From the NCBI GenBank assembly GCA_009781495.1, contig WQYA01000007.1:1-64000 (forward strand): a stretch of DNA of 64,000 nucleotides, in the 5' to 3' direction. Below are positions 50,018 to 62,853 of the stretch, piece after piece; position 1 is the first letter of the stretch, and each line of letters begins with the position of its first letter. A model generated the notes under the pieces. The model was not told the origin of the DNA and searched no databases. It was given only the letters and a program-made list of their open reading frames with translations. The translations under genes were made by a program, and so were the position numbers. The stretch is from Cystobacterineae bacterium. Its GTDB lineage: Bacteria; Myxococcota; Myxococcia; Myxococcales; Myxococcaceae.

Positions 50018-50119
50018 GGGTTTAGGGTAGGGGGCCTGCGCGGGGATGGGGTAGCGCGGAGGAGGAAGGGATGGTTTTGGAGGTTAGCGCGCAGGGGAGG
50101 GGGGCTAATTTTGGAGGTT

Positions 50120-50245
50120 AACAAGTTGGAGGGGGCGTGGGGGGAGGAGGTTTGGAGGCTTGCGAGCTGGGGCTAAAGGGGTATATACCCCCTTCACCCC
50201 CGTCCAATCACCCATGGAGGCGTCTGACTGCACTCCCTTCAACCG
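50120..50245 (+). repeat. Dispersed repeat, copy A (hairpin plus CACCCCCGTCC box)
   Basis: Purine-rich sequence and TTGCGAGCTGGGG (about 50158-50171) are followed by a palindrome (GGGGTATATACCCC, 50178-50191) and the box CACCCCCGTCCAATCACCCA (from 50195) with TGGAGGCGTCTG. Very similar text occurs near 56250-56335, 56560-56633, 62540-62620 and 62800-62900. The hairpin differs in sequence in every copy but is present in all. The spacer around it (50018-50294) has no gene. Confidence 0.7.
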
Positions 50246-50294
50246 AAAACCGGCCTTTGGACACGCTGATTTCATCAGCGCTTCCTTAAGGCCC

Positions 50295-51047
50295 CTACTT
50301 CGGGTTTCGGCAGGTGCCCAGGCCGGTTGTCGTGTCGTGGCCTCCGCAAATTCTGCTGCCGGAGCAATGGCTGTCTTCAACGCACCCGGGTTGACAGCTG
50401 GCGCCCGTGTCCAGAGAAATGCAGACGAATTCGCCAGGAGGGCAACCCACCTTGCACTCTGAGAGTGGCGCACAGGTGCCCTCTTTGCATGTTTTCCCCT
50501 TAGGGCAGTTGTCGCTGGTTTCGCATTGGCGCTCTCCCACGCAGTGGCCTAGGTGGCAGCGTTGCCACAACTCACATGGGCTGTCGTCACCAACGGTGCA
50601 CAGCACAGGCTCAGGGTTTGAGGTTGGGTTTCGGCAAGTGCCTAGGCCGGTTGTCGTGTCGCGGCCTCCGCAAATTCTGCTGCCGGAGCAATGGCTGTCT
50701 TCGACGCACCCGGGTTGACAGCTGGCGCCCGTGTCCAGAAAAACGCAGACGAACTCACCCGGAGGGCAACCCATCTCACAATATGAAACTGGCACACAGG
50801 TGCCGTCTTTGCACGTTTTCCCAGGGCAGTCGTCGTTGGTTTCGCATTGGCGCTCTCCCAGGCAGTGGCCTAGGTGGCAGCGTTGCCACAACTCACATGG
50901 GCTGTCATCACCGACGGTGCACGAGACAGGTGTGGGCAAGTCCTCGGTGTCGTCCTTGTCCTTATCCTTGTCCTTGCAACTGACAAACAAAGAAAACGCG
51001 AGGACAAGGGCAAGGAGGGCACAAAGGATGGGAGCTTTCTTTTTCAT
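50295..51047 (-). CDS. Cys-rich lipoprotein with two tandem near-identical modules
   Basis: A 250-aa protein with lipoprotein signal LCALLALVLAFSLFVSC (Cys 24), a KDKDKDKDD linker, and two copies of a Cys-rich module of about 101-103 residues at 41-141 and 148-250. Each module reads CTVGDDSPCELWQRCHLGHC, then CPPGEFVC, LDTGASCQPGCVEDSHCSGS and RICGG.DTTTGLGTCRN. The two copies differ in only a few places and have about 14 Cys each, all probably paired. Such modules occur in myxobacterial proteins annotated as Dickkopf-like Cys-rich. It is a surface lipoprotein with unknown ligand. Confidence 0.75.
   Translation of the reverse strand: MKKKAPILCALLALVLAFSLFVSCKDKDKDKDDTEDLPTPVSCTVGDDSPCELWQRCHLGHCLGERQCETNDDCPGKTCKDGTCVPVSYCEMGCPPGEFVCVFLDTGASCQPGCVEDSHCSGSRICGGRDTTTGLGTCRNPTSNPEPVLCTVGDDSPCELWQRCHLGHCVGERQCETSDNCPKGKTCKEGTCAPLSECKVGCPPGEFVCISLDTGASCQPGCVEDSHCSGSRICGGHDTTTGLGTCRNPK
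50298..50606 (-). repeat. Second of two tandem coding repeats (Cys-rich module)
   Basis: This 309-nt block is nearly identical in DNA and protein to 50625-50927 of the same gene. The unit boundaries fall close to a Pro/Glu linker (RNPTSNPEPV). High DNA identity indicates recent duplication or gene conversion. Confidence 0.8.
50625..50927 (-). repeat. First of two tandem coding repeats (Cys-rich module)
   Basis: This 303-nt block is the partner of 50298-50606. Copies of a few differing codons (for example CLGERQCETNDDCPGKT against CVGERQCETSDNCPKGKT) show limited divergence, including a 3-nt length difference. Confidence 0.8.
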
Positions 51048-51336: not shown

Positions 51337-53946
51337 TCAAGGAGAGAAAATATCTTCATCAACCCACACAGCCGGGTAGATAAGCCCACGCTCACATAAG
51401 TTGGCTTGGAAAACTCTTCCAGGAACAGACTGACTGAAGCTGTTGCTTAAAGAGGCCGCCGTATTGGGCGCGTCACCCGGGGAACGCAGCCACATGCCAT
51501 AATAGGCATAGGAAGTGGGAATGTTTATTTTCGCATAGTTTGCCCTGGCAATGTCGCTGCTCGGCGCGTTGGCGATGGGAGTGTTTCTCAAGAAATGGAA
51601 CATGGACAAGAAATTCGCGGCCTCCCCATAGCTCAAAGCAAAGGCAACATCCTCCCCTCTGCTCAGCAGAACTTGGCTTGGCTTTGTGAAGCCGTCGTTC
51701 ACCGACACAGGCCATGTGCTCGTGCCGATGGCCTCGCTCACATGGGTCTGCACGGAAAAGTTCCGTATTCTGGCGGTTTCAGGCAGCTTCTCGGCCTCAC
51801 CTGGTGCGCTGCCGTTGAACCAGTCGTTGATTTTCCAGCGGACAGAGTTTTTGGCAAGCATATAATCGGTAGTGGTTCCGAAGCTCGTATGTTGCCAATT
51901 CGGATCGTTCCAAACCACATTGCCATATAGCACCTTATAATAGATGTTGATGAATTCCGAACGTACCACCAGCAAATAGTTGCCGTTTCGGGCAATTTCT
52001 ATCCAGTTCACCGTGTCGCCGGTTTGCGCCGGGGTGAGGATTCTGCCGTCCACGCCGGTGGGGACGTCAACAACAGGAAGCGCAGCGGTATTCAACGCTT
52101 CGCTCCACACAGCGCTCAACACGCCATTGCTTGAGGCAACGAAATGAAGCCTATAGGCTGTTCTTGAAGAGAGACCGGAAAGCGTCCTGGAAAACGCTGT
52201 GTTGGCTGTCATTGCACCCGTGTTGCCGCCTGCTCCGGCGACAATTTGCGCGGCAGTGGGAACGGGCTCATTGGCCAAAAGTATCACCCAATAGGCGGTA
52301 GCGTTTTCATTGCTGGTGATGCTGAAATCTGCGCCCGTAGCTGTAATGTTGGTTAGGCTTCCGTTAGAAAGTACCGGGGCGAGGACAACGGGAGCCAGCC
52401 ACTGTCGGATGTCGTCCCAAACCAAATGGAGGCTTGAATAACAGTCATAATTACCTGAAGCAACGGAGCCACCTTCGTTTGAGCAAGATGCTCTGCCGCC
52501 CCAAAGCCCTCCCCGCAAAAGATATTCGCCGTTCGACAAGGTGAACAACCCTGAACCGCTGCTCCCGCCTTCAGTCGTAGCTTCTGACCAGCTCACAAGA
52601 GTTAAGGTGGAGTCATCCGGAGTACCACCATTGTTTTGCACGACATCACAGGTTCCATCTCCTATGGCAGTACTGACTTTTTTGATGTCGAACCTAGGAT
52701 GATGAATGCCAAGAGCTGCACCACTCAAAAATCGCCTGGAATCCCAACCTGAGGAAAAGGCATCTGCAGGAGGGAAGTTGTTGAGGCGAAGCAGCAATGT
52801 ATCTGTAGCCCTTCTGGCATGCAAGAGTTGCGCCCCACCACCCACGCGACGGATGTTGCCGAGATTCACCGAAGCATTGTCGCCACAACGAGAGGCCTCT
52901 TCAAACCAGAAAGTTTCGAGGGTGCTCGCTGCATTTTGGGTATTGATGCAGTGAGCAGCACTCCAGAAATAAGGCGTGCCAGAATTGCCCGCGTCATTCA
53001 GCAATGTTCCGGAACAAGTAAACAAACCACCGAGCTCATTAAATTCCATCCTGGCAACAGCTCTGGAAACGCTCTGAAAAGCTGCGCCAAGCTCACTAAA
53101 TCTGCAGACAACATCCCTGTGACAAGGCCCGGAATTCCCTATCCATAATTGCTTTTCCGCAAAACGGGCGGCATCCAGATAGTCTCTTGCCGAGGTGAGA
53201 ATATGGGAAACACCCTCCAGGCGAATCTCGACATCTTTTGTTTCCACCGTCGATGGCAGGTAGAGCTCAATGTTCTGCGTCTCCCCTTCGGTGGATGGCG
53301 TCCAATAGACTTTGTTTTCGCCACGCAAGGCCTTGGCCTCTTTGCCGCGGATGACACCGATGATTTTTTCGGGTTCTCCAGAGCCGGAAAAACGAAATTC
53401 AGCGTTGTCGGGCAAAGCATGAAGCTGCAGAGCAACCCGTATCCTTTGGGCATCAGGAGATGTGAGCGCAAATCTGCCAACAACACCGTTTCCTATGTTT
53501 TGCCAATTCAAAACAAAGGGTTTGGCCTCACGCATTTCCGTCTCGTCAGCCTTGCGATGAATGCCGATTCTGAGCGCTTTGGCGCCAAAGCCTTTGTTGG
53601 AATTCTGACGGTTTTCTTCTTGTAACTCCCTGAGCGCTGACTCAGGCAATGGGTTGAAAGTAACAACCGTTAGCGCATGGGCGTCCGACGCGGCCTTGCT
53701 CGGAAACCCCGAGGGGGAACGCCAGGAAATAACTTCCTCGGCCTTGGCCGAAATGACCGGCGCGCCTGAAACGCGCATTCCATCCTCCCCCCCTCGTTGT
53801 TCAGAGACTTCCTCCTCAGGCCTTTTTTCAGAAGTCTCGGAGGGGCGAATGCCTGCCAAACTCCCTTCCCCGCAGCTTGACAAAAACACCAGCGCCAAAC
53901 CACACAACAACCACAACATTCTCTGCCGATGATATAAGCTGCTCAC
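51337..53946 (-). CDS. Trypsin-like serine protease lipoprotein with Fn3-like part and DUF6273-like C-terminus
   Basis: This protein of about 869 aa is started at GTG 53946; ATG 53919 and TTG/ATG codons further upstream are alternatives. A lipoprotein signal (LWLLCGLALVFLSSCG) is followed by an Arg/Glu-rich linker and a beta-rich region. A chymotrypsin-like lysyl-endopeptidase-type domain has the triad in SAAHC, ATDTLLLRL and GGSSGSGLF. About 95 residues of Fn3-like text (VLSNGSLTNITATGADFSIT) follow. The C-terminus ends in YGMWLRSPGDAPNTAA ... GLIYPAVWVDED, the WLRSPG...RPAlW pattern of DUF6273. Such DUF6273 ends are usually on surface proteins, so the protease may be displayed outside. It is in its own unit. 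Confidence 0.75.
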   Translation of the reverse strand: MSSLYHRQRMLWLLCGLALVFLSSCGEGSLAGIRPSETSEKRPEEEVSEQRGGEDGMRVSGAPVISAKAEEVISWRSPSGFPSKAASDAHALTVVTFNPLPESALRELQEENRQNSNKGFGAKALRIGIHRKADETEMREAKPFVLNWQNIGNGVVGRFALTSPDAQRIRVALQLHALPDNAEFRFSGSGEPEKIIGVIRGKEAKALRGENKVYWTPSTEGETQNIELYLPSTVETKDVEIRLEGVSHILTSARDYLDAARFAEKQLWIGNSGPCHRDVVCRFSELGAAFQSVSRAVARMEFNELGGLFTCSGTLLNDAGNSGTPYFWSAAHCINTQNAASTLETFWFEEASRCGDNASVNLGNIRRVGGGAQLLHARRATDTLLLRLNNFPPADAFSSGWDSRRFLSGAALGIHHPRFDIKKVSTAIGDGTCDVVQNNGGTPDDSTLTLVSWSEATTEGGSSGSGLFTLSNGEYLLRGGLWGGRASCSNEGGSVASGNYDCYSSLHLVWDDIRQWLAPVVLAPVLSNGSLTNITATGADFSITSNENATAYWVILLANEPVPTAAQIVAGAGGNTGAMTANTAFSRTLSGLSSRTAYRLHFVASSNGVLSAVWSEALNTAALPVVDVPTGVDGRILTPAQTGDTVNWIEIARNGNYLLVVRSEFINIYYKVLYGNVVWNDPNWQHTSFGTTTDYMLAKNSVRWKINDWFNGSAPGEAEKLPETARIRNFSVQTHVSEAIGTSTWPVSVNDGFTKPSQVLLSRGEDVAFALSYGEAANFLSMFHFLRNTPIANAPSSDIARANYAKINIPTSYAYYGMWLRSPGDAPNTAASLSNSFSQSVPGRVFQANLCERGLIYPAVWVDEDIFSP

Positions 53947-54382
53947 ACAAAACCCCCATCGTCTTGAAAGACGTGGTTGTATTCTACTGACAACCCCAAA
54001 CCGCCACCTTATCAAACCTCGCCAATTTAACCTTGTCAACCCGGCGCTTCTCCCTCTGCTTCCATCCACTCACCCGCCGCCCAAAACCCCGCCCAACGGC
54101 CAAACGACTATGGTTTCCGCAAAAACCATGCCAGAAAATTTGACGGCTAAGCACCGAAAAACACAAGTTTGGATTTGTTTCTTCGCGTCTCCATTGTGAG
54201 ACGGTGTGTCTCTCAAACCAACCAACAACACCTTTGGGTTTTTGCTCAAAAAACAACTGTAACGTCTTGGGTTAGGCTATGGCTAAAGTGGTATTGGTTG
54301 AACTCCATACATTTTTTGGGGGAGGGGAGTGTTGGGGTTTAGCGCGGAAGGGGCCTCAATTTGGAAACTTACGGCATTTGGT
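53947..54382. other. Spacer between protease and Sel1 genes
   Basis: 436 nt with small reading frames but no protein that I would defend. The one of about 90 codons on the minus strand (53984-54256) has no family, unusual composition and no good ribosome binding site. Purine-rich stretches near 54310-54350 (GGGGGAGGGGAG) resemble the repeat-type spacers seen elsewhere. It should hold the promoter of the protease gene. Confidence 0.35.
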
Positions 54383-56146
54383 TTATATTTTCTGAAGCAT
54401 GCTTTGTGCGTCGGCGTGTCCTTGTGCCGCCGCCTTGCGGAACCATTTTGCTGCTTTCGCTGTGTCTTTTGCCACACCTTTGCCTTCGACATAGCGCCAC
54501 CCAAGCGCATATTGCGCGCTCGCATCCCCCTGGTTTGCCGCTTTTGTGAGTTGTTCCACCGTTTCCGCAGCGTCCTTTGCAACAGCCTGGCCTTGGACAT
54601 GGCCCATTTCGGGTTTGCTTTGCGCTTCCATATTCCCCTGGGCGGCTGTTTCGGGGGCCTGCTCCAGCGAGGTTGTTTTGTCCATTGCAAGGGGTTGGCT
54701 TTTGCCCAATATTTTTTGAAGCGCCTTTTGGGCCTCCGGCTCCTCGTCTTCTGCCGCTGAGGTGAGCCATTCTATCGCCTGCGCTTCGTCCTTTTCTACA
54801 CCACGGCCTTCGGCATAGCTGAGCCCAAGTTGGGTTGCTGCCACCGGCCATCCCTGCTCCGCTGCCATCCTCCACCACCTTACCGCCTCCACTTCATCCT
54901 TCTCCACACCACGACCTTCGGCATACATGAGTCCAAGGCTGGTTTGCGCATCCTCGTCTTCCTTCTCAGCCGCCATCCTATAATACCTCACCGCCTCCGC
55001 TTCATCCTTCTCCACAATTCGGCCTGTTTCATAGAGCCACCCCAGCCGGGTTTGCGCACAAATACTTCCTTGTTCTGCCGCCAAGTTATACCACTTTAGG
55101 GCTTCTGAGTCATTGGGCTCCACACCTTCGCCTTCGAGATAGGCCAGCCCAAGCCGGAGTTGCGCATGCTCGTCTTTCTGCTCAGCCGCCAGTTTGAACC
55201 ATTTGATGGCTTCCGCTTTGTCCTCATTGAAGCCCACGGCACTCCAATACATATCGCCAAGGCGACATTGCGCTCGTGCATTCCCTTCTGCGGCCGCCAG
55301 TTGCGTCTTCTTTTTTTCTATTTCAAGAAGATTCCTATGACGCTCTGCCGGCGACAAAGGTTTTTTCCTGGGGATGGACAACAAAACCACCAATAAAGCT
55401 ACCCCCCCAAAAATATACCATTGCAAACCCAGCCCCTTGGACGCCTTCTCAGGGTTTCCAATTTTCTCAAGGGCATCTTGCGCATGCTTGTTCCCCTGGC
55501 TTGCCGCCGCTTTGAAGAGCTTCAAGGCTTCTGCCTCATTTCTCAGAACGCCTTTGCCTAAGAAATACCTTGCCCCAAGGCTGAATTGCGCATCCGCATG
55601 CCCCTGCTGGGCCGCTTTTCTGAACCACCGCACCGCTTCCATCGCATCCTTCTCGACGGCCTCACCTGCGTAATACAAAACCCCAAGGAGGAATTGTGCA
55701 TTCGCATCGTCCTGCTTTGAGGCCTCTCTCAACCACTTCGTCAACTCCGCGTTGTCCACCTCGACGCCTGGAGCGCCGTCATAAAGAAGCGCAAGATTCA
55801 GTTGTGCACCCGCATCCCCTTGCTGGGCTGCCAGACGGAACCACGTCAAGGCTTCTGCAAAATTTTGCTCCACACCCAGGCCAAAGACATGGAGCAAGCC
55901 GACATAGTTTTGTGCGTCTGCATCCCCTTGCTCTGCTGCCAGCCGACACTGCTTTCGCGTCGCTTCGCTGTCCTGCTCAAGTTTCTCCGCCTGACGGTTC
56001 TTCTTCCCGTTGATAAACCCCTCTATTTCCGTGCTGTCCTGGTGAAACCTCTGCACCCGACAAGCATTGGGCGTCACCAGAGGCTCGTCCGCATGGGCCG
56101 ACAAGGGCAAGGCTGCAAGGCAAAGCGCCAGCACACAGGTTTTCAT
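54383..56146 (-). CDS. Sel1-repeat protein with a central membrane helix
   Basis: This protein of about 587 aa starts at ATG 56146 with AGGAG upstream. A cleavable-type signal peptide (MKTCVLALCLAALPLSAHAD) leads into five Sel1-like repeats (about 65-235, units such as AAQQGDAGAQLNLALLYDG). One membrane helix follows (about 243-258, WYIFGGVALLVVLLSI) and then six or more Sel1-like repeats (about 285-480, GDMYWSAVGFNEDKAEAIKW). A Ser/Gln-rich spacer and two more units near 545-587 end the protein. Sel1 repeats are scaffolds for protein contacts. The topology places repeats on both sides of the inner membrane. No partner gene is adjacent. Confidence 0.85.
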   Translation of the reverse strand: MKTCVLALCLAALPLSAHADEPLVTPNACRVQRFHQDSTEIEGFINGKKNRQAEKLEQDSEATRKQCRLAAEQGDADAQNYVGLLHVFGLGVEQNFAEALTWFRLAAQQGDAGAQLNLALLYDGAPGVEVDNAELTKWLREASKQDDANAQFLLGVLYYAGEAVEKDAMEAVRWFRKAAQQGHADAQFSLGARYFLGKGVLRNEAEALKLFKAAASQGNKHAQDALEKIGNPEKASKGLGLQWYIFGGVALLVVLLSIPRKKPLSPAERHRNLLEIEKKKTQLAAAEGNARAQCRLGDMYWSAVGFNEDKAEAIKWFKLAAEQKDEHAQLRLGLAYLEGEGVEPNDSEALKWYNLAAEQGSICAQTRLGWLYETGRIVEKDEAEAVRYYRMAAEKEDEDAQTSLGLMYAEGRGVEKDEVEAVRWWRMAAEQGWPVAATQLGLSYAEGRGVEKDEAQAIEWLTSAAEDEEPEAQKALQKILGKSQPLAMDKTTSLEQAPETAAQGNMEAQSKPEMGHVQGQAVAKDAAETVEQLTKAANQGDASAQYALGWRYVEGKGVAKDTAKAAKWFRKAAAQGHADAQSMLQKI

Positions 56147-56249
56147 CGTTTCTCCTGGGAAAAGAGAGTGGCTCTGTAGCACAGAGTGCCTGGCCAGGCC
56201 GGTTTTATGTTGATTTGAGCTTCCTATGGAGGATGTCAAGCTTGGGGCA

Positions 56250-56633
56250 AGGGGGTTTCTGCGCAGGCCGTAACCCCCTCACCCCCGTCCAATCGCCCAT
56301 GGAGGCGTCTGGGTACATCCCCTTCAATGGGAACCCAGCGCAATGTCAAGAGAACTTGACATTATGTCAAGAAAACATGACATGCGTGTCAAGGAGGCTT
56401 GACATTATGTCAACTTACGACTTGACATTGTGTCAATTATTCTTGACATTGTTTTCGACAGGCCTAGGTTTGGGTGTTGGCGAGCTGGGGGAGGGCGTGG
56501 GGGAGGAGGTTTGGAGGCCTGCGATCTGGAGGAGGCGTAGAGGGAGGAGGCCCGAATGTCGTCGAGCTGGGGGTAAAGGCATTTGTGCGCGGGGCGCAAA
56601 AATACCTTCACCCCCGTCCATCCATCCATGGCA
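56250..56633 (+). repeat. Left complex repeat (copies B and C) flanking the HerA-NurA island
   Basis: This block holds copy B (hairpin AGGGGGTT 56250-56257 / AACCCCCT 56272-56279, then CACCCCCGTCC 56280-56290), an array of TTGACAT/ATGTCAA palindromes (56343-56449), a long purine-rich segment (GTTGGCGAGCTGGGGGAGGG and following), and copy C (GCGCGGGGCGC hairpin near 56587, CACCCCCGTCC 56609-56619). About 180 bp (56455-56633) is nearly identical to the reverse complement of 62540-62717. It lies just upstream of the Sel1 gene and points toward the island. Confidence 0.8.
56343..56449. repeat. Array of TTGACAT-N-ATGTCAA palindromes, left
   Basis: Sites: half-site ATGTCAA 56343-56349, the full palindrome CTTGACATTATGTCAAG 56355-56371, variant TGACATGCGTGTCA 56378-56391, full TTGACATTATGTCAA 56399-56413, variant TTGACATTGTGTCAA 56422-56436, and half-site TTGACAT 56443-56449. 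Centres are about 21-23 bp apart, so the sites lie on one face of the helix. It looks like a cooperative protein-binding array or iterons. Confidence 0.75.
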
Positions 56634-56682
56634 ACGTCCGAATGCTTGCACCTCAACTGACAGCACGCACCTCAATGAAAAT

Positions 56683-57442: not shown

Positions 57443-59590
57443 ATGGCTGACATTATGTCGAATTTTGCCGAAAAGCTGAGTGAACCAGAGTTGAACGAGC
57501 ACTTGAAAAAGGCCAGTCGAGTGTTGACGTCGCTTATTGAGGAACACGCTTACGTCGGTGAAGTCTACTCGCTGGGGTACGACGAAGCTCTTGTCCAGAT
57601 ACACGACTTTCACCGCCAACGGGTTGGTGGTATCCCTGCACTGTCCTTCTTGCTCGCCACACGTGTTGGCCCTGAATCAATTGCCGACGTTCGACAAGAA
57701 GACGCATCTATCGTTCTCCTACGCGTTCTTGACAAAGCCAACCTCCCCAACGCGGACGAAGCCTTGCGTGTCCGGGTTGAGACGGCCCAACGTGTCAGCG
57801 GCGAAGTAGCACGGCATTGGGACGACCGTGCGGTCATGGACCCCACGACACATAATTTGCTCAGCTATGCGGGTGTTCGATGCCGAGTGCTGGGAACCTA
57901 CTACATGATTAGCAGCGGATCCGACGCCAATTCCGAGTTCCGGTTCTCCTTCGGATCGGACCTCAGCAACTACTACCCAAACCGCGGGCTGAAGGTCTTC
58001 AAGCCGCGCAGCAGAGTGTTGGAGGCGATCGTCAACTTTCGTGACCATAGGTTAACCGTTTCCCAACGAGGTGGGCAGGTTCCTGTCGGGCAGGTTCGCT
58101 ACGCTTCGAGCCATAGGCATTTCCAAGGCATTGACAACGTGCCTGTGCAAATTACACCAACGGATCTCCTCGGCCAGAAGACAGCACTCTTCGGTATGAC
58201 TCGCACCGGAAAATCGAACACAACGAAGATCATCCTCAAATCCATCTTTGCCCTTAGGTGGGACGAGAACCCGATTCGTATAGGCCAGATTGTCTTCGAC
58301 CCGAATGGCGAATACGCCAATGAGAATGAGCAGGACTCCGGCGGTCACGGGTTCAACGCGGAAGCAATCAAGAACGTCTGGAAGTGTGGCCCAGCATCCC
58401 TACACCAGCAGTTGCAGAAGGAAGTGATTACCTACGGCCTCGCGTCGCATCCGAACGACCCGAATCGGCAGCTTATGCTGCTGAATTTTCACCGGGACGA
58501 GAACATCGCTATTGGCAAAGAAATCATTGACAACGCACTCGCCAACTACAGCGATAAGTACATCAGCAACTTCCGAGACGTTCGGATGGACGTGCCGACC
58601 GAAACCGACCAATCCGCAACTATTCGCTTTCGCCGTCGGCTGCTGTGTTACCGCGCTCTTTTGTCGGACGCCGGCTTTGATCCACCGTCCGACATTAGGC
58701 CCATCACAAAGGGTTTGTTCAAGAAGGAACTCCTGGATGCCATGGAGAACATGGAGAAATCGACCTCAAACGCCAACGAATATGCCGCAGCGGCAAAGGC
58801 CTTGCGCAATCCAACTAGTTGGTCTCAAGTGGCATATGCGTGTTCGATTCTGAATCAGTTCATCAACGATCCAAAAAGCGGCTACGACCAGTTCGATCGT
58901 CAACAGATGGACCAAAAGGAGAAGGAGGGGAAGGAAGCCACGCCATGGGCGGATGCGGATTTGAAGGGAATTCTTGGCATATGGAAAACCCGTAATGGTC
59001 CGCGTTTGGTTGGCAGTGTGAGGGAGCAGCATACTTCCAGAACTAACGGAGATTATGCGGATGTGATCTGCGATGAATTAAAGATGGGCCGACTGGTGAT
59101 TGTAGACCAGTCAAGTGGAAACCCCGCACTCAACAAGGCGGCTGCGGATCGAGTGATTCGTCGCGTTTTCGAGCGGAACCAGCAGCAATTTCGATCCGCA
59201 CAGCAACCGCCTGAGATTCTCGTATATGTCGAGGAGGCGCACAACATCTTGCCGTCCTCGCACGAACTCGACCTCCAAGACATTTGGGTTCGCACGGCGA
59301 AGGAAGGGGCCAAGTATCACATCGGGCTGGTCTATGCGACTCAGGAGGTCAGCTCGATCCAGAAAAACATTCTGCGGAACACGGCTAATTGGTTTATCGG
59401 TCATCTAAACAACACAGACGAGACACGGGAAATTCGCAAGTTCTACGATTTCGCTGACTTCGAGGGCAGCATTCTCCGTGCTCAGGACAAAGGTTTTATC
59501 CGGGTCAAGACGCTGTCAAATCCGTATGTCATACCAGTGCAGGTAGATCGCTTCCTTATCCAAGATACCTCGAACCCTCAGGGGCTGTGA
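57443..59590 (+). CDS. herA: HerA-type DNA translocase/ATPase
   Basis: This protein of about 715 aa is started at ATG 57443, six bases after GGGAG; a second ATG three bases earlier is possible. The N-terminal region (about 35-225) is beta-rich as in the HAS-barrel of HerA. The Walker A motif is [10 protein letters not shown] at 251-260. DPNGEYA near 290, an insert of about 200 residues, and Walker [10 protein letters not shown] at 592-600 follow, with [13 protein letters not shown] as sensor. It is of the FtsK/HerA ATPase class (DUF87-like). HerA hexamers pump duplex DNA into an associated NurA nuclease for end processing. nurA follows after one base, so they form a coupled pair, with a DNA methyltransferase as third gene. 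Confidence 0.85.
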
Positions 59591-59591
59591 G

Positions 59592-60953
59592 ATGCCATAC
59601 GAAGGCGAATACGCGACATACCACCCCCTGCATCGCATCTCTGAATGCCAAAGAGTTAAGAGCCTACTTACACGGTCCAAGCTCTTAGATGTGGCACAGG
59701 TTACGTATGCTCCCAGGCCCGTAGAAGCACCGCTGCAAGTGGCTGCGTTACCGCGATTCATCCTCGCTATTGACGGCAGCTACACCGAGGTGAATGTGAA
59801 GAATGGGTACCCAGGAGCTAAGATTGGTTACTGTACCGCGGCAAGCGTTCTTCTTGATCTACGTCTAATTGATGAACTGGATGCCGTGCGTCCGGTTAAC
59901 CCCGTTGAGTTCCGTAAAACAGAACAAGCCGCAAGTGTCGATGCAGCACTTCCAGGTAGCAACGTAGTCACACGAAGACAGAACTCCGCACGGGCGTCTT
60001 TCCGAGAGGAGCTATACGATTTATTTACCAACATCGTTGTTGACGAAGATGACCGGACGAGCCTGCTTTCTACCTACGAAGTTTTGCTTGCACTTAAGCC
60101 TCCAGCCAATCCCCAGAGGTGCCCGTACAGAGAGACTCACGGCTGTACCGAGGAATTTATAGTCGGCCCTGGCTATACAGAGTGTCCGACATGCAGGCAA
60201 CTCGTCTACTCAACGGACGCCCTTCGCATCCACGAACGATTCAACGACATCGGAACGAACGGTGAAGCGTTCGGTTTAGTGATGCAGGTTATCGAAAGGC
60301 TGCTCATGATTCATTTTCTGCGTTGCTTCGAGCATCGGAATCTACTGGAGCGCCTTGTGTCCCTCGCCTTTTTCATTGATGGGCCGTTGGCAGTATTTGG
60401 CCCACCAGCCTGGCTGAGCGCCGCTATCAGCCAGGAACTCAAGCGGATCAATCAGAAGGTGCAGACGGCATCCAGCCAAGACATCTTGATCTTGGGTATT
60501 GAGAAGTCTGGGGCTTTTGTACAGCACTTCGAGGATATCGATCAGACGGAAACGCCTGGGCAGCAGCTTTTTGCCGTGCGGCAGTATATTCTTCTGACAG
60601 ACGGTTACATCAAGGAGCGCATCCAGCATTCCGACACCCAAAAGCGATACGGCAAAGACACCTATTTCGGTCGCAAGTTCTTCTACAAGGCGCAGAGTGG
60701 GGCGCGGATTGTTGCCAGCATCCCATTCTTATCCGATGTACAAGACACCATCGACAGCGACGATATCTCCCTCTATCCGCAATTTGCTGCCGTTTGCACA
60801 CTTCTTGACCGCGTGGTATCTTCGCGATACGTGAACGCGGTGTCTCCGTTGATAGCGGCTAACGCTCAGGCCGCCATCCCGCTGCAACTTGGGTCGAAGG
60901 TGTTGACGCAACTGGCCAGGGCGCTTCTTGGAACGGCTGAAAATGGAAAATAA
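59592..60953 (+). CDS. nurA: NurA-type nuclease with an internal Cys cluster
   Basis: A 453-aa protein starting one base after herA. The first metal-site motif is AIDGSYTEV (D61, S63) and the second FFIDGPLAVFG (D263), which is the NurA pattern of a 5'-to-3' nuclease with RNase H-like fold. Between them lies a segment with C177, C185, C198 and C201 (CPYRETHGC ... CPTC), a likely zinc ribbon that standard NurA lacks as far as I know. The C-terminal part (about 320-453) contains YFGRKFFYKAQSGARIVASI. The nuclease would be driven by HerA, in defence or in repair of DNA ends. It overlaps the methyltransferase gene by 11 nt. Confidence 0.82.
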   Translation: MPYEGEYATYHPLHRISECQRVKSLLTRSKLLDVAQVTYAPRPVEAPLQVAALPRFILAIDGSYTEVNVKNGYPGAKIGYCTAASVLLDLRLIDELDAVRPVNPVEFRKTEQAASVDAALPGSNVVTRRQNSARASFREELYDLFTNIVVDEDDRTSLLSTYEVLLALKPPANPQRCPYRETHGCTEEFIVGPGYTECPTCRQLVYSTDALRIHERFNDIGTNGEAFGLVMQVIERLLMIHFLRCFEHRNLLERLVSLAFFIDGPLAVFGPPAWLSAAISQELKRINQKVQTASSQDILILGIEKSGAFVQHFEDIDQTETPGQQLFAVRQYILLTDGYIKERIQHSDTQKRYGKDTYFGRKFFYKAQSGARIVASIPFLSDVQDTIDSDDISLYPQFAAVCTLLDRVVSSRYVNAVSPLIAANAQAAIPLQLGSKVLTQLARALLGTAENGK

Positions 60954-62055
60954 CGGCAAAACGTTCAGTACTGCGGCGGGGAGATGGGAAGGAGTCGGTC
61001 CATACTACGCTATGTTCCCGATCCGCTTTGCCGACGCAGTTATCGACGAGCACACAGCAGAGGGTGATACGGTGCTTGATCCGTTTGCCGGTCGTGGAAC
61101 CGCAATTTTCAGTGCGGCGACATTGGGGAGGCGCGGGTTCGGCATCGAAATAAGTCCCGTTGGATGGGTCTACGCGAGGGCCAAGCTTAGCCCTGCACCT
61201 TTGGAGCAAGTCGAGAAACGACTACTAGAAATTGCCGACGCCAGTGACAAGTATGCTGAGCAGGCCAGATCACTACCGAGGTTTTTCAAGAAGTGTTTCT
61301 CATCTTCTGTCCAGCGTTTCCTGCTAGCTGCGCGGGACGGGCTCGATTGGCGTAGACGCACCGCAGACAGGACGTTGATGGCGATCCTCATGGTCTACCT
61401 TCATGGTAAAGAAAACCAAGCCTTATCGAATCAGATGCGGCAGACAAAAGCCATGTCGCCGCACTACGCAATCGAGTGGTGGGATAAGAACGGAACAAAA
61501 CCGCCGGACGTCGACGCCGTAGAATTTATGCAGAAACGAATCCGTTGGCGATATGCAAGCGGCGTAGTTGCGGCAGACGAAAGTCGAGTTTTTCTTGGTA
61601 ACAGCATCGACCGGCTACCGCGACTAGAACGGTTCATGCGCGAGGAAGGAATTCCGAAGGCGAAACTTCTACTTACGTCGCCGCCGTACTTCGGTGTAAC
61701 TAACTATCATTACGATCAGTGGCTCAGACTCTGGTTACTCGGGTTTGAAACTGATGCCTATATCGCACGCGGACCCTACCAAGGGAGATTTACGCATCCA
61801 GGTCATTACCAGACCTTGCTCAAAAAAGTATTCTGCCGCGCTGCCAAAATAGTGGCAGACGACTCTGTTGTTTACGTTCGTACCAGCGAGGCTCCATTCA
61901 CTAAGCAGGCCACGCTCGATGCCTTACTTTCGGCGTTCCCCAAGAAGTGTTTGCTCAAAAGATGCCAGCCGTTTCTAAGGCCGACTCAAACGCATCTGTA
62001 TGGCGACAAGACACCGAAAGTGGGGGAAGTGGACTTGATTTTAATGCCTTCATGA
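60943..62055 (+). CDS. DNA methyltransferase (N4-cytosine/N6-adenine type)
   Basis: This protein of about 370 aa starts at ATG 60943, overlapping nurA by 11 nt; a TTG at 60928 is possible. The SAM-binding motif is D46PFAGRGTAIFSA with GIEIS, and the catalytic motif TSPPYFGVTNYHYDQW lies at 245-260. The order is thus motif I before motif IV with about 190 residues between, which fits the alpha-like order with a target-recognition part between. TSPPY is common in N4-cytosine but also N6-adenine enzymes, so the modified base is open. Within herA-nurA it would mark self DNA, the partner of a nuclease that attacks unmarked DNA, although no classical restriction enzyme is present. Confidence 0.85.
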   Translation: MENNGKTFSTAAGRWEGVGPYYAMFPIRFADAVIDEHTAEGDTVLDPFAGRGTAIFSAATLGRRGFGIEISPVGWVYARAKLSPAPLEQVEKRLLEIADASDKYAEQARSLPRFFKKCFSSSVQRFLLAARDGLDWRRRTADRTLMAILMVYLHGKENQALSNQMRQTKAMSPHYAIEWWDKNGTKPPDVDAVEFMQKRIRWRYASGVVAADESRVFLGNSIDRLPRLERFMREEGIPKAKLLLTSPPYFGVTNYHYDQWLRLWLLGFETDAYIARGPYQGRFTHPGHYQTLLKKVFCRAAKIVADDSVVYVRTSEAPFTKQATLDALLSAFPKKCLLKRCQPFLRPTQTHLYGDKTPKVGEVDLILMPS

Positions 62056-62539
62056 AGCTGGTCGCCCAAGCTATCGAGTCTTTTACTTGGTTAGCCCTGG
62101 CATAAGATGCCAAATGCTGTATCTCATATACGTTTAAAAGTAGTAAATTTTGAAACCGTATCACTCGCTGGGATTGGCAAGTCTGTGAGATAGGTGGAGC
62201 TACGCCTTTGTGAGGAACGTTAGCTTAACCATGGACAAACCCATCACAAGTATGCGCTTGCCAATTTTTTTTACAGTGGCCTCAATGAGTGTCGCAGCAG
62301 TAAGCAGGGCTGTTGTCCATGGGCCTTATCAACATTTTTTGTCACTCAAAATTCTTATGCGCCGCGCATTTTCTGAATGTCTCCATGTCGAAAACAGAAA
62401 GCTCCTACAACACTTCCCTTGCAAGTTTGTCTAACACCGCAGCGATGTCATTCACACTGCCGCCTTCTGTCAGCAATGGTGTGGCCCTCAATGGAAGCGT
62501 TAGACCAGTTCCCCGTTGAGATGACTGCACCCAACCGCC
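62056..62539. other. Spacer between the methyltransferase and the right repeat
   Basis: 484 nt without a supportable gene. A frame of 74 codons at 62210-62434 has no ribosome binding site or family. No terminator with T-run after the methyltransferase stop could be seen. It separates the operon from the right repeat. Confidence 0.4.
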
Positions 62540-62722
62540 TCCATGGATGGATGGACGGGGGTGAAGGTATTTTTGCGCCCCGCGCACAAATGCCTTTACC
62601 CCCAGCTCGACGACATTCGGGCCTCCTCCCCCTACGCCTCCTCCAGATCGCAGGCCTCCAAACCTCCTCCCCCACGCCCTCCCCCAGCTCGCCAACATCC
62701 CAACCTAGGCCTGTCAAAAGCA

Positions 62723-62786
62723 ATGTCAAGAATGGTTGACATAATGTCAAGCTGAAGATTGACATAATGTCAAGTTCTCTTGACAT
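62723..62786. repeat. Array of TTGACAT-N-ATGTCAA palindromes, right
   Basis: Sites: half-site ATGTCAA 62723-62729, full TTGACATAATGTCAA 62736-62750, full TTGACATAATGTCAA 62759-62773, half-site TTGACAT 62780-62786. Centres lie 21-23 bp apart, as in the left array. Confidence 0.75.
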
Positions 62787-62853
62787 TTGACTGGGTTCCC
62801 GTCGAAGTGGATGCCGTCAGACGCCTCCACGGGTGATGGGACGGGTGTGTGTG

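What the first reader, a model, noticed from the sequence alone, without database searches (positions are those of the whole stretch)
57443..62055. HerA ATPase - NurA nuclease - DNA methyltransferase operon as a restriction-modification-like defence system
Sequence shows three genes that are almost fused: herA and nurA are one base apart, and nurA and the methyltransferase gene overlap by 11 nt. HerA has Walker A (251-260) and B (592-600), NurA has the DGS and IDG sites, and the methyltransferase has DPFAGRGT and TSPPY. HerA-NurA is known as a DNA end-processing pair in archaea and bacteria, and HerA-like ATPases occur in several phage defence systems. Adding a methyltransferase would give self-marking. 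I do not know a characterised system with exactly these three genes. Flanking inverted repeats argue for an exchangeable cassette.
Basis: partly seen in the sequence, partly recalled or inferred. Interest (0 to 1): 0.88.

Follow-up and report, generated by a model that had tools for sequence, protein, structure and literature searches.

The report
Methylase-paired HerA–NurA DNA restriction operon
Three tightly joined bacterial genes (a ring-shaped DNA pump, a DNA-cutting enzyme and a DNA-marking enzyme) travel together between distant bacteria, archaea and phages, and most likely form a little-known defence system that marks the cell's own DNA and shreds unmarked invading DNA.

Summary
HerA ATPase (57443-59590), NurA nuclease (59592-60953) and a DNA methyltransferase (60943-62055) form one operon with intact, conserved active-site motifs. 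It is a conserved unit. An unbiased search with NurA alone found the same gene order in 11 further intact loci from seven other bacterial phyla, with phylum-mixing trees, so it spreads horizontally. More distant HerA-NurA pairs on an archaeal plasmid, a megaplasmid, a Vibrio phage and viral contigs also sit beside a methyltransferase, in several cases an unrelated D12-type (Dam-like) enzyme. One is adjacent in 20 of 24 scorable loci. NurA is absent from the other 188 genomes sampled in the phylum, so this is not housekeeping repair. HerA's best solved-structure sequence match is TdpA (E 1.5e-30); NurA's best fold match is chain G of the TdpAB-DNA complex. From memory, TdpAB is the restriction half of the phosphorothioate-gated TdpABC defence system. 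Best reading: a TdpABC-like, modification-gated HerA-NurA restriction system with methylation as the self mark. The flanking inverted repeats belong to a dispersed host repeat family. Main caveat: the Thermus ICETh1 operon, with the same three families, was studied as DNA-donation machinery. Neither defence nor methylation was tested here.

The parts
57443..59590 (+). HerA/FtsK-superfamily DNA-translocase ATPase, 715 aa; Walker A residues 251-259, Walker B residues 592-601
   Evidence: PF01935 E 9e-11; best PDB profile match TdpA 8wet E 1.5e-30; motifs conserved in 17 aligned sequences
59592..60953 (+). NurA-family RNase H-like nuclease, 453 aa, with a putative four-cysteine zinc-ribbon insert (C177/C185/C198/C201); invariant D61 and D263
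   Evidence: PF09376 E 8e-9; AlphaFold model pLDDT 69; Foldseek top hits TdpAB chain G, D. radiodurans NurA, Sulfolobus NurA; alignment
60943..62055 (+). N6/N4-type DNA methyltransferase, 370 aa, motif I (DPFAGRGT) before motif IV (TSPPY), helical insert (res 87-204) between; TSPPY suggests N4-cytosine (inference)
   Evidence: PF01555 E 1e-12; PADLOC MTase_II E 2e-20; AlphaFold model pLDDT 85.5; Foldseek top hit E. coli Dam; alignment A2
56387..56657 (+). Left arm of a 271-nt inverted repeat flanking the operon; member of a dispersed host repeat family, not a dedicated cassette end
62515..62785 (-). Right arm of the 271-nt inverted repeat

Best explanation
A horizontally spread, three-gene restriction-modification-like defence module. 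The methyltransferase marks host DNA. HerA forms a ring that loads on DNA and pumps it by ATP hydrolysis into a NurA nuclease docked on the ring, which degrades it. Methylated self DNA is spared because the mark stalls or fails to activate the HerA-NurA machine (as phosphorothioate is reported to do for TdpAB; from memory). Unmarked phage or plasmid DNA is pumped and destroyed. Shown here: gene identity, operon architecture, intact motifs, purifying selection, cross-phylum conservation and transfer, repeated association with unrelated methyltransferases, and TdpA as HerA's closest solved relative. Inferred: assembly into one complex, base methylation as the self mark, gating at the translocation step, and defence as the function.
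For: (1) The order HerA-NurA-MTase is identical in 12 intact loci (window included) from about eight phyla, found by searching with NurA only. Pairwise distances of the three genes correlate at r 0.84-0.89. (2) Methyltransferase-gene density in 13 host genomes is only about 1 PF01555 match per 0.5 Mb (101 matches in about 50 Mb), yet one is adjacent in all 12. (3) Divergent pairs have either a homologous N6/N4 enzyme (archaeal plasmid L017, megaplasmid L020) or a non-homologous D12-class enzyme (L013, L019, L040, L042, L043, L045). Well-supported branches force at least two changes of the D12 label on the HerA tree and three on the NurA tree. (4) HerA is closest in PDB to TdpA (E 1.5e-30 against 1.4e-15 for the next); NurA's top fold hit is chain G of TdpAB-DNA. 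(5) Patchy: no NurA-family gene in 188 other genomes of the phylum; the NurA profile finds 1 of 195 and 1 of 388 genomes in two phyla. (6) Some loci lie in defence islands (type III RM and TmtA-like neighbours in L005, TmtA-like in L007, truncated HsdM beside L004, AbiTii beside L018) or beside a phage integrase (L019). (7) Damaged copies keep the methyltransferase while HerA or NurA is broken (L020 HerA split by an IS; L013 NurA with a stop), or lose parts of all three (L008); none of the complete close relatives keeps HerA-NurA without it.
Against: No defence, methylation or complex was tested. Three related cyanobacterial plasmid pairs and one viral contig (L041) have HerA-NurA with no adjacent methyltransferase, so some relatives manage without. 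In Thermus ICETh1 the same three families serve DNA donation, and loss of the methylase is reported to have only minor effect on transfer (PMC7767461). In this genome the operon is not in an obvious defence island. Fold-hit E-values for TdpAB and classical NurA are nearly equal (1.0e-4, 1.4e-4, 2.1e-4), and the NurA model is only of moderate confidence.
Confidence: 0.68

Rival explanations
1. DNA-transfer machine: HerA exports or captures dsDNA, NurA trims it and the methyltransferase protects it, as proposed for the Thermus ICETh1 TdtA operon (transjugation).
For: ICETh1 carries TthHB27I (Tth111II)-NurA-TdtA(HerA/FtsK-like)-PF01555 methylase in one transcript; tdtA and nurA are required for donation (PMC5365140; PMC7767461).
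Against: The window operon and its close relatives have no integrase, tRNA att site or type IIG enzyme next to them and no conserved fourth gene. HerA is closest in PDB to TdpA, a defence translocase. Carriage on a temperate phage and viral contigs fits defence cargo better. TdtA's sequence could not be compared here.
Confidence: 0.1
2. DNA end-processing or recombination module: HerA-NurA resects breaks and the methyltransferase is an accessory or regulatory gene.
For: HerA-NurA is best known from archaeal and Deinococcus end resection (PMC9960219).
Against: The NurA family is missing from all 188 other genomes sampled in the phylum, so it is not core repair there. It is patchy and mobile. 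Non-homologous methyltransferases are adjacent in separate lineages. Work on Thermococcus HerA-NurA argues that even that complex does not resect ends and suggests antiviral DNA degradation (PMC12977600).
Confidence: 0.1
3. Selfish or addiction module: the trio maintains its replicon by post-segregational killing as some R-M systems do, with phage defence a by-product.
For: Relatives lie on plasmids and phages; broken copies tend to keep the methyltransferase.
Against: Not exclusive of defence; the close relatives lie on contigs with no consistent mobile-element or replication genes next to the trio.
Confidence: 0.08

Closest known systems
TdpABC (thermophile phosphorothioate-gated defence system; PDB 8wet, 8wfd)
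   Same: HerA-like translocase plus NurA-like nuclease as the restriction half and a DNA-modifying enzyme as self mark (the role of TdpC is from memory). HerA's best PDB match is TdpA; NurA's best fold match is chain G of TdpAB.
   Different: The modification gene is an AdoMet methyltransferase (base methylation), not a phosphorothioation enzyme. No PAPS-reductase-like gene lies next to the operon, and the only one found in the genome is a weak partial match elsewhere. HerA is larger (715 against 586 aa).
Thermus thermophilus ICETh1 tdtA operon (PMC5365140, PMC7767461)
   Same: NurA, HerA/FtsK-like TdtA and a PF01555 methylase co-transcribed with tight or overlapping genes.
   Different: Gene order NurA-HerA-MTase; includes a type IIG R-M enzyme and lies in an ICE with integrase; studied for DNA donation, not defence.
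HerA-SIR2 and HerA-DUF4297 (HerA-DUF) anti-phage systems
   Same: HerA ATPase paired with a partner effector (PMC11291478 and works cited in PMC12977600); detectable sequence similarity of HerA.
   Different: Partner is SIR2 or DUF4297, not NurA; no methyltransferase; thought to act by sensing infection rather than by self marking (from memory).
MADS (methylation-associated defence system)
   Same: Methyltransferase plus a HerA-like ATPase; PADLOC mad8 matches HerA at 5e-13 and mad2 matches the methyltransferase at 1e-5.
   Different: None of the other mad genes is at the locus; no PADLOC model, MADS included, matches the NurA.
Classical HerA-NurA (archaea, Deinococcus)
   Same: Same two protein families and adjacent genes.
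   Different: No methyltransferase; repair context; low sequence similarity (no PDB NurA sequence hit even at E 10).

Membership tests
TdpABC | HerA-like translocase closest to TdpA | tested here: met
   Profile A3: 8wet TdpA E 1.5e-30, next 1.4e-15
TdpABC | NurA-like nuclease partner (TdpB) | tested here: inconclusive
   8wfd chain G is the top Foldseek hit, but E 1.0e-4 against 1.4e-4 and 2.1e-4 for classical NurA; model pLDDT 69
TdpABC | TdpC phosphorothioation gene in the operon | tested here: not met
   Third gene is a PF01555 methyltransferase; PF01507 is only a weak partial match on another contig of this genome and absent from two other host assemblies; that TdpC resembles PF01507 is from memory
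Restriction-modification (functional sense) | DNA methyltransferase genetically coupled to a nuclease | tested here: met
   12/12 intact close loci; 8/12 divergent loci
Restriction-modification (functional sense) | Sequence-specific endonuclease inhibited by cognate methylation | not testable with these tools
   No REase gene in the module; needs biochemistry
Thermus ICETh1 transjugation operon | Type IIG R-M enzyme and integrase/att sites around NurA-HerA-MTase | tested here: not met
   No integrase, IIG enzyme or tRNA seen around the window operon
MADS | Remaining mad genes (multi-gene cluster) present | tested here: not met
   Three genes only; adjacent ORFs are not part of the transcription unit and no further operon gene follows
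SIR2-HerA / HerA-DUF | SIR2 or DUF4297 partner | tested here: not met
   Partner is NurA; neither domain found
Classical HerA-NurA repair pair | Core, clade-wide presence as repair genes | tested here: not met
   Absent from the other 188 genomes sampled in the phylum

The most novel reading that the evidence does not exclude
HerA-NurA plus any DNA methyltransferase is a general, so far unnamed class of modification-gated defence. Selectivity comes from a processive translocase that reads methylation while pumping DNA, rather than from a sequence-specific endonuclease. The mark is interchangeable (N4/N6-type or D12-type methylation here, phosphorothioate in TdpABC).
Probability: 0.5. Interest if true: 0.85.

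Novelty: new variant of a known kind. Interest (0 to 1): 0.7.

Why it matters
If right, the phosphorothioate-gated TdpABC mechanism is one instance of a much wider class in which the same pump-and-shred engine is paired with swappable DNA marks. No PADLOC-DB model matches the NurA and no paper found in the held library describes the trio as a defence system, so it would be missed by current defence annotation. It would also recast the Thermus transjugation operon and orphan HerA-NurA pairs, and it makes a clean question testable: how can a translocase tell methylated from unmethylated DNA?

Tried and rejected
Flanking inverted repeats as cassette ends: rejected as specific evidence, because the repeat occurs on eight other contigs. 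Empty-site comparison in two same-genus genomes: not possible, since the downstream neighbour has no match there; the upstream gene at 50298-51047 does have same-genus homologues, which ties the contig to the genus. Sequence search of the NurA profile against PDB: no hit at E 0.1, nothing credible at 10. Search for relatives of the Vibrio phage NurA alone in viral contigs: none. E. coli genomes: no match. TdpABC papers are not held, so its mechanism is cited from memory; Iyer 2004 and Makarova 2013, which might mention the association, are not held either. A promoter-like scan found none, which says little for this taxon.
Full report
CHECK. The methyltransferase start at 60943 is supported by homologue starts. 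Comparison with the nearest relative L002 gives dN 0.08-0.13 against dS of about 0.9-1.9, so all three genes are under purifying selection. The 271-nt inverted repeat around the operon exists, but the same sequence has 15 matches on nine contigs of this genome. It ties the operon to its host rather than marking a mobile cassette. The contig is 65,783 bases long, so the operon is about 3.7 kb from its end.

CONSERVATION. A genome-collection scan with NurA alone gave 14 loci. Eleven are complete and keep HerA-NurA-MTase in the same order at 47-86% identity: Planctomycetota, Fermentibacterota, Verrucomicrobiota, Gemmatimonadota, Omnitrophota, Armatimonadota and Nitrospirota, besides the window's own phylum. 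L014 starts inside nurA and is followed by the MTase. L008 (Competibacteraceae) is a deletion remnant. L013 (Alphaproteobacteria) is divergent. No fourth gene is conserved. HerA and NurA trees agree in outline and mix phyla, and the distance matrices of the three genes correlate at 0.84-0.89, so the trio moves and evolves as a unit. It is rare: 1 of 195 genomes in the own phylum and 1 of 388 in the phylum of G199. No other NurA-family gene was found in 189 genomes of the own phylum.

DISTANT RELATIVES. Plasmid and phage collections gave HerA-NurA pairs at 22-37% identity. L017 (archaeal plasmid of Halorarius) has HerA-NurA-MTase. L020 (Deferribacter megaplasmid) has MTase-HerA-NurA with HerA split by an IS200/IS605 element. 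L019 (Vibrio temperate phage) has integrase-HerA-NurA and a convergent D12 methyltransferase. Three cyanobacterial plasmids (L018, L021, L038) have HTH-HerA-NurA without a methyltransferase, one of them followed by AbiTii. A HerA-profile scan of viral contigs added L040, L042, L043, L044 and L045, each with a D12 methyltransferase immediately upstream, and L041 without an adjacent one. L044 ends inside HerA and is not scored. Counting loci in which both members of the pair are visible (window included), a methyltransferase is adjacent in 20 of 24 (12/12 close, 8/12 divergent). The methyltransferase background in 13 host genomes is 101 PF01555 matches in about 50 Mb. The loci are related by descent, so these counts are not independent events; but on the trees the D12 label needs at least two changes on well-supported branches for HerA and three for NurA. 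Recruitment of non-homologous methyltransferases beside the pair is the strongest sign that DNA methylation itself matters to it.

STRUCTURE. The HerA profile is closest in PDB to TdpA (8wet, E 1.5e-30), well ahead of the next entry 8j4u (1.4e-15) and Sulfolobus HerA 4d2i (9e-14). The NurA AlphaFold model (pLDDT 69) has as its top Foldseek hit chain G of the TdpAB-DNA complex 8wfd, followed closely by Deinococcus and Sulfolobus NurA. The fold assignment as NurA is therefore firm, while the preference for TdpB is not. The NurA clade carries a putative four-cysteine zinc-ribbon insert (C177, C185, C198, C201). The methyltransferase model (pLDDT 85.5) has motif I before motif IV with a conserved helical insert between; its top fold hit is E. 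coli Dam, and its TSPPY motif IV is typical of N4-cytosine enzymes (general knowledge).

MECHANISM. From memory, TdpABC phosphorothioates host DNA through TdpC, and TdpAB degrades unmodified DNA because the modification blocks translocation; the papers are not held here. By analogy the window trio would mark self DNA by base methylation, and HerA-NurA would pump and degrade unmarked DNA. Neither the mark, the gating nor the defence has been shown. Thermococcus HerA-NurA degrades DNA exonucleolytically regardless of end structure, and its authors propose an antiviral role (PMC12977600).

RIVAL. The Thermus ICETh1 operon contains TthHB27I, a NurA homologue, the HerA/FtsK-like TdtA and a PF01555 methylase in one transcript. 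tdtA, nurA and the restriction enzyme are needed for DNA donation, and methylase loss has minor effect (PMC5365140, PMC7767461). The window operon lacks the ICE features. A transfer role cannot be excluded.

VERDICT. It is a new variant of a known kind: a modification-gated translocase-nuclease system related to TdpAB but with a methyltransferase. PADLOC-DB has HerA and methyltransferase models but returns nothing for NurA.

Noticed in passing
L034:5965-11315; L035:5965-11324: On Rhizobium and Bradyrhizobium conjugative plasmids, relatives of the same methyltransferase family (about 30% identity) lie convergent with a ~1,400-aa AAA-family ATPase (the L035 copy resembles DpdJ and Mokosh in PADLOC): possibly another methyltransferase-paired defence unit.
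   Followed up: partly
L018:4625-9433; L021:3559-7239; L038:3470-7146: Cyanobacterial plasmid HerA-NurA pairs with an upstream small HTH gene and no methyltransferase; one is followed by AbiTii.
   Followed up: partly
L019:1-5750: Vibrio temperate phage carries HerA-NurA and a D12 methyltransferase next to its integrase, typical of defence cargo.
   Followed up: partly
L005:722-17489; L007:4406-7621: Sacsin/NO VEIN-type (TmtA-like) ATPase directly upstream of the trio in two phyla; L005 also has UvrD-PDDEXK and type III Mod/Res downstream.
   Followed up: partly
window 50102-50256, 56280-56668, 62502-62849: GC-rich dispersed repeat family, with copies on eight other contigs of this genome.
   Followed up: partly
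window 51337-54069 and 54383-56239: ORFs that look like a trypsin-like protease with extra domains (910 aa) and a Sel1-repeat protein (618 aa) upstream of the operon on the minus strand; by eye only.
   Followed up: no
window (G000 and same-genus genomes G001, G002): The window's genus has 2.1-2.7 Mb assemblies while family members are about 4-14 Mb, suggesting strong genome reduction.
   Followed up: no
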